Positions 16,913-25,575 of a DNA stretch of 34,171 nt are shown one piece after another. The position numbers and the translations under genes were made by a program. How positions within the stretch are numbered: position 1 is the stretch's first letter; each line of letters starts with the position of its first letter. This stretch comes from Actinomycetota bacterium. Its GTDB lineage: Bacteria; Actinomycetota; Thermoleophilia; Gaiellales; Gaiellaceae. The notes beneath the pieces are model-generated. The model had not been told where the DNA came from, ran no database searches, and saw nothing but the letters and a program-made list of their open reading frames with translations. The stretch covers positions 1 to 34,171 of the forward strand of contig JAFAHG010000175.1 in the NCBI GenBank assembly GCA_019237315.1, written 5' to 3'.

Positions 16913-17962
16913 CCGCCTGGCGCGCCTGCTTCAGCCCTCGCCCAGAGGACGCTCGAGCTCGTCGACCTGCCGTCGGAGTCGCGGGACGAGGGCCTCGTCT
17001 ACGACTACGTCCGCGGGGCCGTCCACCTCCCGCTCGTCCACGACGACGGCGAGTCGCTTCTGTACGCGAAACGCGCCGGGAACCCACTCGTGCTGCTGGC
17101 GGGGCACCTCGACACGGTGCCGCCGCAGGGGAACATCCCCGGGCGGATCGAGGGCGGCGCCGTCCATGGCCTCGGCGCGACCGACATGAAGGGCGGCCTC
17201 GCGGTGATGGTCGAGCTCGCGCGCTGGGCGGCGCACGCCGACCTCGCGTACGACCTGGGGTTGCTCTTCTTCCCGCGCGAGGAGGTCGGACCGGACGAGA
17301 ACCCGTTGCCCGCGCTCTTCGAGGCGACCCCGGTCGTCGACGAGGCGGCGCTCGTCGTGTGCCTCGAGCCGACCGACAACACGCTGCAGCTCGGCTGCCT
17401 CGGCAACCTCGTCGCGCGCGCGGTCTTCGAGGGCCGGTCCGCGCACTCGGCGCGGCCGTGGCTCGGCGTCAACGCGATCAAGCTGGCCCTCGAAGGCCTC
17501 CGACCCGTGCTCGACTCCGAGGCGGTCGACGTCGACGTGCAGGGCCTCGTCTTCCGCGAGGTGATCAGTGTCACGCAGATCCACGGTGGCATCGCGACGA
17601 ACGTCATCCCGGCGCGCTGCGAGGCGACGCTGAACTTCCGGTATGCGCCGACACGGTCGATGGCCGACGCCGAGGCGCGCGTGCGCGAGCTCGTCGGCGC
17701 GGACATCGAGATCCTCCAGCACTCGCCGGCCGCGCACGTCGCGCTCGACTCACCCCTCGTCACCCAGCTGCGCGAGATCGGCGGATTCGAGGTGCAGCCC
17801 AAGCAGGCGTGGACGAACGTCGCGGACTTCGCCGCGCGCGGGCTCGACGCCGTGAACCTCGGGCCGGGCGCGACGCGCTACGCCCACACGGCCGACGAGC
17901 AGGTGGAGATCGCCGCGCTCGTGAAGACGTACGATGCGTTGCAGCGCTTCCTCGCGGCGTGA
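16910..17962 (+). CDS. dapE: succinyl-diaminopimelate desuccinylase
   Basis: 350 residues. Zinc peptidase-family (M20) enzyme that releases succinate to give LL-DAP, the step before DapF. Metal and catalytic motifs: GHLDTVP (H66, D68), GLGATDMKGG (D92), PREEVG (E124, E125), a later CLEPTD and the C-terminal GATRYAHTADEQ. GRSAHSARPWLG lies in the dimerisation domain. The ATG has GAGGTG four bases upstream. It overlaps dapC by four bases (GTGA). With dapC and dapD it forms an operon, which favours DapE over other M20 deacylases. Confidence 0.93.
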   Translation: MPPGAPASALAQRTLELVDLPSESRDEGLVYDYVRGAVHLPLVHDDGESLLYAKRAGNPLVLLAGHLDTVPPQGNIPGRIEGGAVHGLGATDMKGGLAVMVELARWAAHADLAYDLGLLFFPREEVGPDENPLPALFEATPVVDEAALVVCLEPTDNTLQLGCLGNLVARAVFEGRSAHSARPWLGVNAIKLALEGLRPVLDSEAVDVDVQGLVFREVISVTQIHGGIATNVIPARCEATLNFRYAPTRSMADAEARVRELVGADIEILQHSPAAHVALDSPLVTQLREIGGFEVQPKQAWTNVADFAARGLDAVNLGPGATRYAHTADEQVEIAALVKTYDALQRFLAA

Positions 17963-19092
17963 TTCCGCGCTCGCCGGTTCTCTCGGCACTCGCGCAGTAC
18001 CCGTTCGCGCGCCTCGACGACTGGCGCGCCGAGGCGCGCGCTCGCGGTGTCGACGTGATCGACTTCGGTGTCGGCGACCCGCGCGAGCCGACGCCCGAGT
18101 TCATCCGCGACGCGCTCGCGCAGGGTGTGGCCGACGTCTCGTCGTACCCACGCGCGGTCGGGCTGCCGGAGTACCGCGAGGCCGTCGCCGCGTGGCTCTC
18201 GCGCCGCTTCGGCGTCGAGGTCAACGCAGGGACCGAGATCGTCCCGACCCTCGGGTCGAAGGAGGCGATCTTCTCGTTCGCGCAGGCGGTCGTCGGCGAG
18301 CGCCGTCTCGTCGCAGTGCCGGAGCCTGCGTATCCGGTGTACGAGCGCGGAGCGCTGTTCGCCGGAGCCGAGGTCGTGACGTTGCCACTTGCGGAAGCGA
18401 ACGGCTGGCTGCCGGACCTCGAGTCGTTCGACCGCTGGGACGAGCTCGCGCTCGTCTGGACGTGCTACCCGAACAACCCGACAGGTGCGACCGCTCCGCT
18501 CGCGTTCCTCGACGAGCTCGCAGCGCGTGCGCATGAGCACGGCTTCCTGCTCTGCTCCGACGAGGCGTACTCAGAGCTCTGGTTCGGCGACCCGCCCGTG
18601 TCGGCGTTGCAGGTGCGCGAGCGCGAGAACGTGGTCGTCTTCAACACGCTCTCGAAACGCTCGTCGATGACCGGGTACCGATGCGGCTTCGTCGCCGCGT
18701 CACGCGACGTCTGCGACGCGCTGCGTGCATTCAGGCCGACGCTCGGGACCGCCCCGCAGGAGTTCGTGCAGCGCGCCGGGCTCGCGGCGTACGCGGACGA
18801 GGCGCACGTCGAGGCCGTTCGCTCGGTCTACAGGCGGAAGCGCGAGGTGCTCCTCCCCGCGCTCGAGGCTGCCGGATTCCGCTCGGCGGGCGGCGACGCG
18901 AGCTTCTTCCTCTGGCTCGCGGTCGACGAGCCGTCGGAGAAGGTTGCACGGCGGCTGCTCGAGCGCGGGCTCCTCGTCGCTCCAGGGTCGTTCTTCGGGC
19001 CCGCAGGAGAGGGGTACGTGCGGCTCGCTCTCGTTCCCGACGAGGACGACTGCCGCCGTGCGGCGGCGATCCTCCTAGGATCAGGCGCATGA
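17959..19092 (+). CDS. dapC: succinyldiaminopimelate transaminase
   Basis: 377 residues, fold-type I aminotransferase. It should transfer an amino group from glutamate to N-succinyl-2-amino-6-oxopimelate. IDFGVGDPREPTP near the N terminus, CYPNNPTGA (169-177), SDEAYSELWF with Asp 201, and FNTLSKRSSMTGYRCGF with the PLP lysine K233 are all in place. The start is GTG 17959, overlapping the dapE stop. The specific substrate is inferred from being between dapE and dapD; the sequence alone gives only the aminotransferase class. Confidence 0.92.
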   Translation: MIPRSPVLSALAQYPFARLDDWRAEARARGVDVIDFGVGDPREPTPEFIRDALAQGVADVSSYPRAVGLPEYREAVAAWLSRRFGVEVNAGTEIVPTLGSKEAIFSFAQAVVGERRLVAVPEPAYPVYERGALFAGAEVVTLPLAEANGWLPDLESFDRWDELALVWTCYPNNPTGATAPLAFLDELAARAHEHGFLLCSDEAYSELWFGDPPVSALQVRERENVVVFNTLSKRSSMTGYRCGFVAASRDVCDALRAFRPTLGTAPQEFVQRAGLAAYADEAHVEAVRSVYRRKREVLLPALEAAGFRSAGGDASFFLWLAVDEPSEKVARRLLERGLLVAPGSFFGPAGEGYVRLALVPDEDDCRRAAAILLGSGA

Positions 19093-19823
19093 CGACCGAC
19101 GAGACGATCGCCGCGCTCGACCGCGGCGAGATCCGCGTCGCCGAGCCGCAGGGCGACGACTGGGTCGTCCACCCCGAGGTGCAGGAGGCGATCCTCGACT
19201 ACTTCCGGTCGCGGAAGATGGAGCCGCGCGAGGTCGGGCCGTTCGAGTACCACGACAAGATCCCGCTCAAGTCGGGATACGACGCGCTCGGTGTGCGCGT
19301 CGTCCCGCCCGCGGTCGCACGGTACGGAGCATTCCTCTCGCCGGGTGTCGTGTTGATGCCGTCCTACGTGAACATCGGTGCATGGGTTGGCCCGCGCACG
19401 ATGGTCGACACGTGGGCGACGGTGGGGTCGGGTGCGCAGATCGGCGCCGACGTGCACCTCGCGGGCGGCGTCGGGATCGGCGGCGTCCTCGAGCCGCCGG
19501 GTGCCCGCCCCGTCATCGTCGAGGACGGGGCCTTTCTCGGCTCGCGCGTCATCGTCACGGAGGGAGTGCGCATCGGCCGCGAGGCGGTGATCGCCGCGAA
19601 CGTCTCGCTGACGGCGTCGGTTCCGATCATCGACGTCACCGGTCCGGAGCCGGTCGAGTACCGGGGCTACGTGCCGCCGCGCGCGATCGTCGTCCCCGGC
19701 ACGCGGCCGAAGGAGTTTCCCGCCGGGACGTATCAGCTCGCGTGCGCACTGATCATCGGCCGGCGCACCGAGGCGACCGACCTGCGGACGTCGCTGAACG
19801 ACGCGTTACGCGAGATCGACTGA
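19089..19823 (+). CDS. dapD: tetrahydrodipicolinate N-succinyltransferase
   Basis: 244 residues. Uses succinyl-CoA to open the succinylase branch of DAP and lysine synthesis. KIPLKSGYDALGVRVVPPAVARYGAFLSPG leads into a left-handed beta helix: MPSYVNIGAWVG, MVDTWATVGSGAQIGADVHLAGGVGIGGVLEP, PVIVEDGAFLGSRVIVTEGVRIG. This is the shorter trimeric DapD of the E. coli/Bordetella type by layout. The ATG overlaps the dapC stop, with AGGA upstream. The stop lies inside the palindrome GACCTAGGTC, one base from the stop of the opposing lipoprotein gene. Confidence 0.95.
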   Translation: MTTDETIAALDRGEIRVAEPQGDDWVVHPEVQEAILDYFRSRKMEPREVGPFEYHDKIPLKSGYDALGVRVVPPAVARYGAFLSPGVVLMPSYVNIGAWVGPRTMVDTWATVGSGAQIGADVHLAGGVGIGGVLEPPGARPVIVEDGAFLGSRVIVTEGVRIGREAVIAANVSLTASVPIIDVTGPEPVEYRGYVPPRAIVVPGTRPKEFPAGTYQLACALIIGRRTEATDLRTSLNDALREID

Positions 19824-19824
19824 C

Positions 19825-20223
19825 CTAGGTCGGCCCGGCCGACGCGCGCGTGAGGAGCACGACGGTGATCTTCGCCGCCTGCGCGGGCGTCGCCGAGATC
19901 GCGAAGAAGCAACTCCCCGGAGGACCGGGCGGCAGGACGACGCGCCCCGTCAGCGGCGTCTTCCCCGCCGGGCCGCGGCGGTGCCACTGCGGAGACTCGT
20001 TCCCGCAGTCGGCGGAGTAGTTCGTCGTCGACTGCACGTTCGGGCTCGCGTGCACCTGCACCTCGAGCTGCGACGGGCGGCCGACCGAGGTGTGCAGGTA
20101 GGCGGCCTCGTGCGGCTTGAACGTCTGCTGGACGAGCACGCTCCAGCTCCCGCCGGACGAACCGCCGCAGCCGGCGGCGACGCCGACGAGGGTAAGCGCG
20201 AGGACGGCGGAGAAGACGCGCAC
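19825..20223 (-). CDS. putative lipoprotein, paralogue of the upstream gene
   Basis: 132 residues. A lipoprotein signal, with VLALTLVGVAAGC as the lipobox and Cys 19 as the acylated residue, is followed by a GGSSGGS linker and a small domain with two further cysteines (SADCGN, GSCFFAI), which could form a disulfide outside the membrane. WSVLVQQ and VHASPNVQSTTNYSADC parallel WEVFGQG and VNATPNVTTKAHYQVQC in the preceding gene, so the two are tandem paralogues. Start GTG 20223 was chosen because the signal peptide begins there. Unknown function. Confidence 0.82.
   Translation of the reverse strand: MRVFSAVLALTLVGVAAGCGGSSGGSWSVLVQQTFKPHEAAYLHTSVGRPSQLEVQVHASPNVQSTTNYSADCGNESPQWHRRGPAGKTPLTGRVVLPPGPPGSCFFAISATPAQAAKITVVLLTRASAGPT
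19829..19843. terminator. short inverted repeat between convergent dapD and lipoprotein genes
   Basis: GTCGGCC-C-GGCCGAC, directly after the ten-base palindrome GACCTAGGTC (19822-19831) that holds both stop codons. As RNA only about five pairs with a five-base loop could form, and there is no T tract. A weak bidirectional terminator is possible. Confidence 0.25.
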
Positions 20224-20248
20224 GGAAGCCAATCCTAGACGGCTCGTT

Positions 20249-20695
20249 TCACTGGCTCGGGGCCGGACGCTCGAGGAGCGTGACCACGACCTCGGCACTC
20301 GCCGGCTTCGTGGCCCGGATGCTCACCGAGCAGAAGAGGCCGTGCGATTCCTGCGACCCGCCCGCGCTCGGGAGCGGGAGCTCGAACGTGAAGGGCGTCC
20401 GCGCTGCGTGCGTCCCTTGCGAGGCGCCGCCACCGCATTGCACCTGGTAATGCGCCTTCGTCGTGACGTTCGGGGTGGCGTTGACGCGGAACTCGATGCG
20501 TTCTGGATTCGACGCGATGCCGTCCGCGCCGGCGGTCGTGGCTCCGCGGTTGTGGCTCCCCTGGCCGAAGACCTCCCAACCCCCACCGGCAGGGCCGCCC
20601 CGGGGCGGCGGCGTGTTCGAGGAGCCGGAACCGCCGCAGCCCGAGAGGAGCGCGACGGCCGCGCAGAGAACGGCGGCCCCTCCCCAGGAACGCAC
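20249..20695 (-). CDS. putative lipoprotein, paralogue of the downstream gene
   Basis: 148 residues. Signal peptide with lipobox VALLSGC (Cys 20), a Gly/Pro/Ser linker, then a domain of about 110 residues with two cysteines (VQCGGG, LFCSVS) matching the paired cysteines of its paralogue. A beta-rich composition (RIEFRVNATPN, TPFTFELPLPS, VSIRATKPASAEVVVTLLE) suggests a small beta sandwich on the outer face of the membrane. Start GTG 20695; the gene follows dapF by nine bases. No family recognised. Confidence 0.82.
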   Translation of the reverse strand: MRSWGGAAVLCAAVALLSGCGGSGSSNTPPPRGGPAGGGWEVFGQGSHNRGATTAGADGIASNPERIEFRVNATPNVTTKAHYQVQCGGGASQGTHAARTPFTFELPLPSAGGSQESHGLFCSVSIRATKPASAEVVVTLLERPAPSQ

Positions 20696-20704
20696 GCCGG
20701 GATT

Positions 20705-21388
20705 CTAGGCCGGTGCAGCCGGACCGGTCAGGAACGCGCGGTCGCCTTCGAACCGGACGCGGAGCCCGCCTGCCGGGAAGTGGACCGTCGCGTCCGCGAG
20801 GCCGAAAGCCGCGGCGACGGCGACCGCGCTCGTCCCCGACGATCCCGTCTCGCCGACCCCCCGCTCCCAGACGCGCGCCTCGAGCTCGCCGGGGCCCAGC
20901 CGTCGCGCGACCTGGACGTTCGTGCGCTGCGGGAACCGCGAGTGGCGCTCGAGGAGCGGCCCGACGCGCAGGATCTCGGCAGGGTCGCCGTCGACGACCG
21001 CGTGCGGGTTGCCGACGTCGACGGGCGTGAAGGCAATTCCCTCGAGCTCCTCACGCTCACCGACGCGCACCGTGCCGAGGTCCTGCTCGACGAGGTCGTC
21101 GTCGAGGAGGCGCGCGTGGACCTCGCGTGGGCCGACGCGCACGGTCACGTCGCGCGCGCCGGTCTGCGCTGCGAGCCAGCACGCGGCGATCCGCGTGCCG
21201 TTGCCGGACATCTCCGCAAGCGAGCCGTCCGTGTTCCAGATCGCGATCTCGAGCCAGTCGTCACCGCGTGCGCGTACCTCGAGCATCCCGTCGGCGTCGC
21301 CGACGTTCTCGCGCACGAGCTCGGGCGTCAGCTGGTCCTCAGCGACGAGGTAGACGTTCCCTTGCGCCTGCCAGCGCGACGATCTCAT
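20705..21388 (-). CDS. dapF: diaminopimelate epimerase-like protein without the catalytic cysteines
   Basis: 227 residues; DapF family, which turns LL-DAP into meso-DAP. Family segments are WQAQGNVYLV at the start, WNTDGSLAEMSGNGTR (51-66), VDVGNPHAVV (124-132), RTNVQVAR (155-162) and WERGVGETGSSGTSA (174-188). Known DapF enzymes use a Cys pair in NG(I/T)RC and ACGTGA. Here Ile 67 and Ser 184 stand at those positions; the nearest cysteine is C70. Also short by about 45 residues. The fold is clear, and the cofactor-free racemase mechanism is uncertain. The ATG lies 50 bases inside miaA, and GGAGGA about ten bases upstream supports it; no later start keeps the conserved WQAQGN segment. Confidence 0.88.
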   Translation of the reverse strand: MRSSRWQAQGNVYLVAEDQLTPELVRENVGDADGMLEVRARGDDWLEIAIWNTDGSLAEMSGNGTRIAACWLAAQTGARDVTVRVGPREVHARLLDDDLVEQDLGTVRVGEREELEGIAFTPVDVGNPHAVVDGDPAEILRVGPLLERHSRFPQRTNVQVARRLGPGELEARVWERGVGETGSSGTSAVAVAAAFGLADATVHFPAGGLRVRFEGDRAFLTGPAAPA

Positions 21389-22223
21389 CCGCGATGTCCT
21401 CCGGCGATCGGTCTCCGTCGAGGGTAACGACGCCCGGGAAGCGGCGGATCCACTTGCGCTGGTAGCGGGCCAGCCTGCGGGTCGCGCTGACTACCGCTTC
21501 AACCGCCTCGTCCGCCGGCAGCGTCGCGAACTCCTCGAGGCCGAGCACCTTGCGGGCGGTCGGCGACAACGGCCTCGACCAGGCTCTGGCCGCTTCTTCG
21601 GCTGCGCCTTCGGCGAGCATCCGTTTCGCGCGAGCCCGGATGCGATTCTCGAGGCGCGCCGGATCGACGGTGAGCGAGAAGACGATCCCGGGACGGCGCA
21701 GCTCGCCGGCCCACAGCTCGTCGCCCGCGAGCGACGCACCCGCTTCGGCCAACTCGAGCGCACGCACGACGCGGCGCCTGTCGTTCGGGTGGACACGGGC
21801 CGCGGCGTCGGGGTCGTTGCGGGCAAGGAGCTCGTGCGCGGCCTCGGGGCCGAGCTCGTCGTAGGCCTGGGACCACCGCTCGCGCACGCCGGGCGCCGGC
21901 GGCGGCGGGATCTCGAGCGATCCGAGCGCCGCGCGGAAATACAACCCCGGGCCGCCGACGAGAATCGGGATGCGGGCGGCGCCGAGGACCTCGTCGATCG
22001 CGTCGTGCGCGAGGTGCTGGTACTCGCCGACAGAGACCTCGTGTTCGAGCGGAAAGACACCGACGAGCCGCGCCGGGTAGTCGGGAGCGGCAGTGATGAC
22101 CGGCAGGTCGGCGTAGAGCGCGGCGGAGTCGGCCGACACGACCTCTGCGTCGAGCCGCTCGAGGAGCGCGGCGGCGAGCGTCGTCTTCCCGGACGCGGTC
22201 GGTCCGAAGAGCGCGAGGATCAC
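21339..22223 (-). CDS. miaA: tRNA dimethylallyltransferase
   Basis: 294 residues. Adds a dimethylallyl group to A37 of tRNAs reading UNN codons; MiaB then methylthiolates it. P-loop GPTASGKTT (7-15), SADSAALY (the usual Gln is Ala here), PILVGGPGLYFRA, HPNDRRRVVRALE and RYQRKWIRRF are present. The start is GTG 22223, overlapping the miaB stop by four bases. The 3' end overlaps dapF by 50 bases on the same strand. Confidence 0.95.
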   Translation of the reverse strand: MILALFGPTASGKTTLAAALLERLDAEVVSADSAALYADLPVITAAPDYPARLVGVFPLEHEVSVGEYQHLAHDAIDEVLGAARIPILVGGPGLYFRAALGSLEIPPPPAPGVRERWSQAYDELGPEAAHELLARNDPDAAARVHPNDRRRVVRALELAEAGASLAGDELWAGELRRPGIVFSLTVDPARLENRIRARAKRMLAEGAAEEAARAWSRPLSPTARKVLGLEEFATLPADEAVEAVVSATRRLARYQRKWIRRFPGVVTLDGDRSPEDIADEIVALAGARERLPRR

Positions 22224-23565: not shown

Positions 23566-23970
23566 TCAGCCTGCGTCCCCGAGCGCCTCCTCGACCGCTT
23601 CCGGAGCGAAGCCCTTGCCGACGAGCCGCCGGCCGGTCCGCGGGCTCGCACCGTCCCGCGTGACGATCGCCGCGAGGCGGTCGGCCTCCGGTTCGAGCGA
23701 TGCGAGCGCTGCCTCGGCTTCGGCCCCGCCGACTCCCTGGTGGCGCAGCTCGGCGTCGATCCACGCGTCGCCGTACCCGCGCGCGGCGAGCGCCTCCGCG
23801 CGAGCCGCCGCATAGCGCGCGTCGTCGACGTAGCCTGCGGCGCGCAGGCGCTCGACCGCGGTGCGCGCCTCGTCGGCGTCGTAGCCCTTCCGTTCGAGGT
23901 ACTCGACGAGGTCCGCGCCCGCGCGGTCCCGCCGCGCGAGCGCCGCCGTCGCAGCCTCGAGCGCCGTCAT
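23566..23970 (-). CDS. recX: RecX-family regulator of RecA (short)
   Basis: 134 residues. RecX proteins bind RecA filaments and limit their growth. The repeated three-helix pattern is visible: LARRDRAGADLVEYLERKGY, then RLRAAGYVDDARYAAARAEALAARGYGDAWIDAELRHQGV, then a third weaker unit to GKGFAPEAVEEALG. Many RecX proteins are 150-200 residues or more, so this is a compact version. The ATG is four bases beyond the recA stop, the normal position of recX. Confidence 0.9.
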   Translation of the reverse strand: MTALEAATAALARRDRAGADLVEYLERKGYDADEARTAVERLRAAGYVDDARYAAARAEALAARGYGDAWIDAELRHQGVGGAEAEAALASLEPEADRLAAIVTRDGASPRTGRRLVGKGFAPEAVEEALGDAG

Positions 23971-23974
23971 CCGT

Positions 23975-25038
<1,064 letters not shown>

Positions 25039-25042
<4 letters not shown>

Positions 25043-25575
25043 CGACCTCCTAGCGACACGGTTTCGAGGACCTCGTACCGGGCCCCACCGGGGCCGAGTC
25101 GAGACATGTAAACAGCGGCGTCGGACGGCACGATCTCGCCGGGCTCCGGCAGGGGTGGCCGAAGCCGGGGACGCTCGCGGAAGCGCAGGACGGTGACGTG
25201 CGGGAGCCACGGCCTGCCCTCGCGCCGGTACAGCCCCGCGGCTTCGAGCCGCTCCTGCACGCGGCCCGCGAGCGCGGTCGCGACGCCTCCCCCGTCGTCG
25301 AGGGTCAGCATCGCCACGCTCCGCGTCTCCCTGTACCCGGCGACCCGAAGGCGCACCGCTCCGGTTTCGGGCGCGGCTTCGCGGAGCGCGGACACGACGC
25401 CGGCGAGGTCGCCGGCAGGACGGTGTCCGAGAAAGGCGAGGGTGACGTGCAGGTCGTGGGCGGGTACGACGCGTCCCCCGCGGAGCTGCCGGGCCTGCCA
25501 CTCGGCGAGGCATCCGGCGACGTCGGCGGGGAGCCGGAGTGCGCAGAAGAGCCGTAGCCGTTCATCGCCGCCCAC
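25039..25575 (-). CDS. thpR: RNA 2',3'-cyclic phosphodiesterase (2H family)
   Basis: 178 residues. Two HxTx motifs, HVTL (H43, T45) and HVTV (H126, T128), define the 2H phosphoesterase fold. [10 protein letters not shown] at the start is the usual ThpR/LigT opening. The enzyme opens 2',3'-cyclic phosphates on RNA ends, at least in vitro; its cell role is not settled. The start is GTG 25575. It sits between cinA and recA, a common arrangement in actinobacteria. Confidence 0.93.

What the first reader, a model, noticed from the sequence alone, without database searches (positions are those of the whole stretch)
20705..21388. DapF-family protein with neither catalytic cysteine
Established: characterised diaminopimelate epimerases need two cysteines, in NG(I/T)RC and ACGTGA. 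Seen: NGTRIAAC and GETGSSGTSA, placing Ile 67 and Ser 184 at those sites; the only nearby cysteine is C70, three residues on. The rest of the family signature is kept, and the window carries dapE, dapC and dapD, so an LL-DAP epimerase is needed somewhere. Either a lineage uses another proton-transfer pair (as the related PhzF fold does with acidic residues), or this protein has a new substrate.
Basis: partly seen in the sequence, partly recalled or inferred. Interest (0 to 1): 0.68.

Follow-up and report, generated by a model that had tools for sequence, protein, structure and literature searches.

The report
Lysine-pathway epimerase using paired serines
A bacterial enzyme that makes a cell-wall and lysine building block, and is described as needing two cysteines, has serine at both of those positions here and in many relatives that seem to depend on it, so the textbook chemistry of this enzyme family may not be the only one nature uses.

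Summary
The gene at 20705-21388(-) is a full-length dapF homologue (NCBIfam equivalog DapF, 124 bits against a cut-off of 114.65; confident model of the DapF fold). Every other LL-DAP contact checked is kept.

It is not a degenerate copy. Both positions are Ser in all sampled relatives from six Thermoleophilia families; across 100 aligned DapFs these columns hold only Ser or Cys. It is the only DapF in the window's genome and in 13 single-contig class genomes tested. In tested genomes lysA is always present and DAP dehydrogenase never found. In many relatives it lies between miaA and a DAP aminotransferase gene. Patulibacter americanus has it as sole DapF, and its order has meso-DAP peptidoglycan. 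Ser/Ser DapFs also occur in other phyla; Ser/Cys and Cys/Ser forms exist.

Best reading: a working LL-DAP epimerase with a serine pair, probably arisen more than once. Function is inferred, not assayed. Engineered Cys-to-Ser mutants of this enzyme group are reported as nearly dead, which makes this interesting. No earlier report turned up in the library searched.

The parts
20705..21388 (-). dapF, DapF-family protein of 227 aa with a Ser61/Ser184 pair in place of the catalytic Cys73/Cys217 of H. influenzae DapF
   Evidence: TIGR00652 DapF equivalog 124 bits against cut-off 114.65; PF01678 90.1 bits; AlphaFold2 pLDDT 97.4, pTM 0.93; best Foldseek matches in PDB are DapF structures
21206..21208 (-). 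codon TCC = Ser61, first catalytic position (residue before GNG, just before helix 62-76)
20837..20839 (-). codon TCG = Ser184, second catalytic position (just before helix 185-194)
21339..22223 (-). miaA, immediately upstream; its end overlaps the dapF start
   Evidence: TIGR00174 151.8 bits against cut-off 148.65; miaA found beside dapF in 48 of 50 Ser-type loci numbered below L083
22220..23764 (-). miaB (true start lies inside this ORF)
   Evidence: TIGR01574 458.7 bits against cut-off 355.3
23975..25513 (-). recA (true start lies inside this ORF); order recA - putative recX - miaB - miaA - dapF
   Evidence: TIGR02012 546.8 bits; the recX name is the writer's reading of the ORF at 23566-23970
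16928..17962 (+). dapE (approximate start), succinyl-DAP desuccinylase
   Evidence: TIGR01900 344.5 bits against cut-off 304.2
17971..19092 (+). dapC-like succinyl-DAP aminotransferase (approximate start)
   Evidence: TIGR03537 367.9 bits, below cut-off 453.6
19089..19823 (+). dapD, tetrahydrodipicolinate N-succinyltransferase (approximate start)
   Evidence: NF008808 302.2 bits against cut-off 204

Best explanation
The protein is a working diaminopimelate epimerase (LL-DAP to meso-DAP) in which two serines, Ser61 and Ser184, stand where other DapFs have the thiolate/thiol cysteine pair and act as the two general acid/base groups on opposite faces of the alpha-carbon. Shown here: homology over the DapF cut-off, fold, single copy, retained LL-DAP contact residues, strict Ser at both sites across the sampled lineage, and a setting of DAP-pathway genes in relatives. 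Inferred: catalytic activity; that the serine hydroxyls themselves move the protons, polarised by the helix N-termini and by exclusion of water when the two domains close; and that the change arose more than once, with Ser/Cys and Cys/Ser forms as possible intermediates.
For: One DapF in the window's genome; each of 29 Ser-type genomes tested, 13 of them single contigs, gave one DapF match. LysA, which needs meso-DAP, is in all 15 genomes tested and DAP dehydrogenase in none (the control C. glutamicum rings). MurE of 11 relatives carries DNPR, the motif known for DAP-adding MurE (writer's knowledge). The columns of Ser61 and Ser184 hold only Ser or Cys in 100 DapF sequences. Contacts to LL-DAP (N11, N52, G62, N63, N127, N157, E175, R176, G185, T186) are kept in all Ser/Ser groups, with a Thr/Ser swap at 186. 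The serines sit just before the helices whose N-termini carry the cysteines in known DapFs (for the Cys enzyme). dapF lies between miaA and a DapC-like aminotransferase gene in many relatives, 17 bases before the latter in L171. Patulibacter americanus DSM 16676 has one DapF, Ser/Ser, and all Solirubrobacterales are stated to have meso-DAP peptidoglycan (PMC3035278). A Ser/Cys pair works as an epimerase in the proline racemase superfamily (PMC4113996).
Against: No assay. Engineered Cys-to-Ser single mutants of DapF-like enzymes keep under 0.1% activity or are greatly reduced (PMC8225329; PMC11602996). A serine hydroxyl has a far higher pKa than a thiol. No compensating charged residue shared by the Ser/Ser groups was found. 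The window's genome is an incomplete draft (91% complete, 301 contigs). An unknown non-homologous epimerase cannot be excluded by homology searches. Proton transfer by serine itself is not demonstrated.
Confidence: 0.66

Rival explanations
1. The Ser/Ser DapF has lost or nearly lost catalysis and an unrelated, unrecognised enzyme makes meso-DAP in these bacteria, the DapF being kept for another reason.
For: Cys-to-Ser mutants of DapF-like enzymes are nearly inactive. Some Ser/Ser homologues outside the class co-exist with a Cys/Cys DapF (Westiellopsis, Pseudomonas, Lacrimispora, Clostridium).
Against: Strict Ser (no Ala, Gly or Thr) at both sites with the substrate pocket conserved. Single copy in lysA-bearing genomes without detectable Ddh. 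Placement beside DAP aminotransferase or lysA genes.
Confidence: 0.12
2. The protein epimerises or dehydrates another amino acid; the serine pair reflects a new substrate or reaction.
For: The family has members with other substrates (O-ureidoserine, histidine, 2,4-diaminobutyrate). In the related proline racemase superfamily the Ser/Thr member is a dehydratase (PMC4113996).
Against: All distal-carboxylate contacts to DAP are kept, whereas PddB lost them. DAP-pathway gene setting and absence of another DapF. meso-DAP is reported in the cell wall of the order to which a cultured carrier belongs.
Confidence: 0.07
3. It is an LL-DAP epimerase, but the protons are moved by something other than the serine side chains (bound water or hydroxide, or another residue), the serines being only positional.
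For: Serine is a poor base at neutral pH. A further Ser is added near the second site: Ser187 in the window's family and most aromatic-type homologues, Ser183 in the f8-f11 clade.
Against: No new ionisable residue is shared by the Ser/Ser groups. Ser is strictly kept although Ala, Gly or Thr might be expected if it were only positional. A Ser is one of the two catalytic residues in a Ser/Cys 4-hydroxyproline epimerase structure.
Confidence: 0.15

Closest known systems
Cys/Cys diaminopimelate epimerase (DapF, TIGR00652/PF01678; H. influenzae, E. coli, Anabaena DapF)
   Same: Fold, substrate-contact residues, GNG and ERGxGET motifs, position of the two catalytic residues at helix N-termini, pathway setting
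   Different: Both catalytic residues are Ser instead of Cys; the window's family is about 40 aa shorter on average and 10 of 23 aligned members of it have no cysteine at all
Ser/Cys 4-hydroxyproline 2-epimerase and Ser/Thr trans-3-hydroxyproline dehydratase of the proline racemase superfamily (PMC4113996)
   Same: Related fold; natural replacement of a catalytic Cys by Ser with retained 1,1-proton transfer in the Ser/Cys case
   Different: Different family and substrate; there one Cys remains in the epimerase, and the member lacking both Cys is a dehydratase
Aromatic-motif Ser/Ser DapF homologues of many phyla (ERGxG-[Y/F/W]-T; e.g. Westiellopsis, Pseudomonas, Aquificota, Dadabacteria, Bacteroidota; seen here)
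   Same: Ser at both catalytic positions; over the DapF equivalog cut-off in the four tested (232-257 bits); the only DapF in 13 of 20 such genomes searched; beside lysA in two Bacteroidota genomes
   Different: Aromatic residue replaces the Glu of GET; separate clade on the tree; site-1 serine codon AGY rather than TCN in most; sometimes accompanied by a Cys/Cys DapF
PhzF
   Same: DapF-like fold (Foldseek)
   Different: About 14-16% identity; acidic catalytic residue and a different reaction (writer's knowledge)

Membership tests
Diaminopimelate epimerase (DapF) | Scores over the curated equivalog cut-off | tested here: met
   124 bits against 114.65 for TIGR00652; 169-195 bits for four other Thermoleophilia Ser/Ser members
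Diaminopimelate epimerase (DapF) | DapF fold | tested here: met
   AlphaFold2 pLDDT 97.4; top Foldseek matches are DapF structures, best E 2.2e-22, TM-score by query length 0.88
Diaminopimelate epimerase (DapF) | Two catalytic cysteines | tested here: not met
   Ser61 and Ser184 instead
Diaminopimelate epimerase (DapF) | LL-DAP contact residues (Hi numbering N11, N64, N157, N190, E208, R209, G74, N75, G218, S219) | tested here: met
   N11, N52, N127, N157, E175, R176, G62, N63, G185, T186; Hi Q44 is G34, as in most Cys/Cys members aligned
Diaminopimelate epimerase (DapF) | Genomic link to DAP/lysine biosynthesis and need for meso-DAP | tested here: met
   dapE, dapC, dapD in the window; lysA present, Ddh not found; aminotransferase gene next to dapF in many relatives
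Diaminopimelate epimerase (DapF) | LL-DAP epimerase activity | not testable with these tools
   needs an assay or complementation
PhzF | PhzF family match | tested here: not met
   No PhzF hit in Pfam or NCBIfam at E <= 0.001; Foldseek E about 1e-12 against 1e-22 for DapF

The most novel reading that the evidence does not exclude
LL-DAP epimerisation is carried out by a serine/serine general acid-base pair that replaced the cysteine pair independently in several bacterial lineages, including ones in which it supplies all meso-DAP, so the thiolate/thiol pair is not essential to this reaction.
Probability: 0.5. Interest if true: 0.82.

Novelty: new variant of a known kind. Interest (0 to 1): 0.7.

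Why it matters
DapF is a standard example of an enzyme that removes a very weakly acidic alpha-proton with a thiolate, and covalent inhibitors aimed at its cysteines have been designed. A natural, apparently essential form with serine at both positions would force a re-examination of how much of the catalysis comes from the thiol and how much from the closed active site. It predicts an enzyme insensitive to cysteine-directed reagents and to oxidative inactivation (C. glutamicum DapF is switched off by a disulfide between its two cysteines, PMC5296763), and it offers natural Ser/Cys and Cys/Ser forms for stepwise tests. It also warns that annotation rules requiring the cysteines would miss many DapFs.

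Tried and rejected
Second canonical dapF in the genome: searched, not found. DAP dehydrogenase bypass: not found in 34 genomes. Sequencing error: rejected, since the same serines occur in all sampled family members. C70 as a substitute cysteine: rejected, since it is R, A, C or K within the family. A compensating charged residue: none shared by the Ser/Ser groups; Glu159 to Gln or Ser is frequent, but Glu is kept in the f3 member and in one of two Acidobacteria. Number of origins: the tree places Ser/Ser forms in separate clades, but the test against one clade for all is borderline (p-AU 0.051), and the Thermoleophilia forms alone may well be one clade (p-AU 0.70, the held tree being the more likely one), so independent origin rests on topology plus codon classes and is not proven. 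In one search the LysA query was the wrong ORF of L163, so lysA adjacency comes only from coordinates. An early motif pattern missed the aromatic-motif Ser/Ser proteins; a profile-based pass found them.

Full report
Observation. The ORF at 20705-21388(-) encodes 227 residues and scores as DapF over the curated equivalog cut-off (124 against 114.65 bits; Pfam DAP_epimerase 90.1 bits). In the alignment to E. coli DapF (QCGNGARC) and in a 94-row alignment the catalytic position is the residue before GNG, which is Ser61 here. Codons are TCC and TCG. So the statement 'neither catalytic cysteine' stands, but the pair is Ser/Ser, not Ile/Ser.

Structure. AlphaFold2 on that alignment gives mean pLDDT 97.4 and pTM 0.93, with Ser61 just before helix 62-76 and Ser184 just before helix 185-194. 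In known DapFs the cysteines sit at the N-termini of helices, which is thought to stabilise the thiolate (PMC12039745). Foldseek against the PDB returns DapF structures first (E 2.2e-22); PhzF is about ten orders of magnitude weaker. The sequence searches returned no solved structure that I could identify as a natural Ser/Ser DapF; 2q9h and 2q9j are engineered C73S and C217S mutants.

Substrate pocket. PMC8225329 lists the H. influenzae contacts to LL-DAP and reports that the 2,4-diaminobutyrate racemase PddB lost the distal-carboxylate ones. In the window they are kept: N11, N52, N127, N157, E175, R176, G62, N63, G185, T186. They are also kept in the other Ser/Ser groups aligned. This argues for the same substrate.

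Conservation in the class. Among sequences with readable motifs, Ser/Ser was found in 34 of 34 sampled members of the window's family (f1), 1 of 1 in f3, 10 of 10 in f8, 2 of 2 in f9, 18 of 18 in f10 and 3 of 3 in f11. Sampled members of f2, f4, f6, f7 and f12 are Cys/Cys, and f5 holds Cys/Cys and five Ser/Cys sequences. Families are code letters given by the tool; f10 includes a genome with a contig length (137,497) equal to that of a record titled Solirubrobacterales. In a set of 100 DapFs from many phyla the two columns contain only Ser or Cys (57/43 and 53/47). Not every genome of the class was read at these positions.

Is it the only DapF? The window's genome has one (draft, 91% complete). 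In the class, 286 of 300 genomes have a match, nearly all as two domain hits. In one search all 29 Ser-type genomes tested, 13 of them single contigs, gave one match each. lysA is present in all 15 genomes tested and DAP dehydrogenase in none. MurE of 11 relatives carries the DNPR motif. Patulibacter americanus DSM 16676, a named isolate, has a single, Ser/Ser DapF. PMC3035278 states that meso-DAP is the diagnostic peptidoglycan amino acid for all members of Solirubrobacterales and names Patulibacteraceae as one of its families. G190 (6.4 Mb, one contig, Ser/Ser) matches the published size of the Conexibacter woesei chromosome (6,359,369 bp), but its identity is inferred only. Solirubrobacter also contains meso-DAP (PMC10722151).

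Gene setting. The window order recA, putative recX, miaB, miaA, dapF recalls the order around dapF in Mycobacterium tuberculosis (writer's knowledge). miaA is beside dapF in 48 of 50 Ser-type loci numbered below L083. In many f8-f11 loci a DapC-like aminotransferase gene follows dapF closely, 17 bases away in L171, and dapD lies beside it in L164. Outside the class, in Tangfeifania and in a Bacteroidales MAG the Ser/Ser dapF lies about 170 and 50 bases from lysA by the match coordinates.

Wider distribution and origin. Ser/Ser DapFs also occur in two Acidobacteria MAGs, a Chloroflexi MAG, and a clade spanning Aquificota, Dadabacteria, Methylomirabilota, Rokubacteria, Bacteroidota, Clostridia, a cyanobacterium and Pseudomonas, in which the Glu of GET is Tyr, Phe or Trp. 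In 13 of 20 genomes of that clade it is the only DapF found; in those 13 lysA matches are present and no DAP dehydrogenase was found. In others (Westiellopsis, Pseudomonas, two Lacrimispora, Clostridium sp. LS, a Sedimentisphaerales MAG) a Cys/Cys DapF is also present, so a separate role is possible there. A Rubrobacteraceae MAG is Cys/Ser. On a 100-row tree the Ser/Ser proteins fall into separate clades. With the two columns dropped, the fewest changes are five at site 1 and four at site 2. One clade for all Ser/Ser is borderline against the data (p-AU 0.051), while one clade for the Thermoleophilia forms is quite compatible. Site-1 serine is coded TCN in the Thermoleophilia Ser/Ser forms with few exceptions, but AGY in most of the aromatic clade and in four of five Ser/Cys sequences, which favours separate Cys-to-Ser events. 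Independent origin is therefore likely but not proven.

Mechanism. Inferred: the two serines take the places of the two bases, on opposite faces of the alpha-carbon, polarised by helix N-termini and backbone amides, in a pocket that excludes water on closure. The precedent is the Ser/Cys 4-hydroxyproline epimerase of the related proline racemase superfamily (PMC4113996). The difficulty is real: Cys-to-Ser mutants of PddB keep under 0.1% activity, and that paper says the same was reported for M. tuberculosis DapF; HisR mutants are greatly reduced. No shared compensating charged residue was found. Frequent co-changes are Gly8 to Ala, Glu159 to Gln or Ser, and an added Ser at 183 or 187; these are candidates for what makes serine work but differ between clades, and clade-specific drift is an equally simple reading of them.

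Literature. Of the eight searches of the open-access library, five concerned Ser variants or catalytic residues of these enzymes, one the proline racemase superfamily and two the cell walls of the order. No listed title or abstract describes a natural Ser/Ser DapF. I read passages of nine papers, not every hit, and most subscription papers are not held. Novelty is therefore likely rather than established.

Verdict. The function is strongly suggested by genomics and by the cell-wall chemistry reported for a cultured order, but no activity has been measured.

Noticed in passing
L006, L008, L018, L020, L025 (family f5); L157 (Rubrobacteraceae MAG): Natural Ser/Cys and Cys/Ser DapFs, possible intermediates between Cys/Cys and Ser/Ser forms.
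   Followed up: partly
L138, L147, L103, L095, L112, L117, L135 and others: A multi-phylum Ser/Ser DapF clade with Tyr, Phe or Trp in place of the Glu of ERGxGET; sole DapF in some genomes, beside a Cys/Cys DapF in others.
   Followed up: partly
G313 contig C33 19152-21332; G326 contig C40 43609-45649: Ser/Ser dapF directly beside lysA in two Bacteroidota genomes.
   Followed up: partly
window 19825-20298(-) and 20249-20695(-): Two adjacent small ORFs with lipoprotein-like N-termini that look alike to the eye, between dapD and dapF; no NCBIfam match.
   Followed up: no
G311 (Westiellopsis): Three DapF homologues in one cyanobacterial genome: two Cys/Cys with Ile or Asn in place of the Glu of GET and one Ser/Ser.
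   Followed up: no
window's family f1 (alignment A2): DapF about 40 residues shorter than in other families, and 10 of 23 aligned members have no cysteine at all.
   Followed up: no
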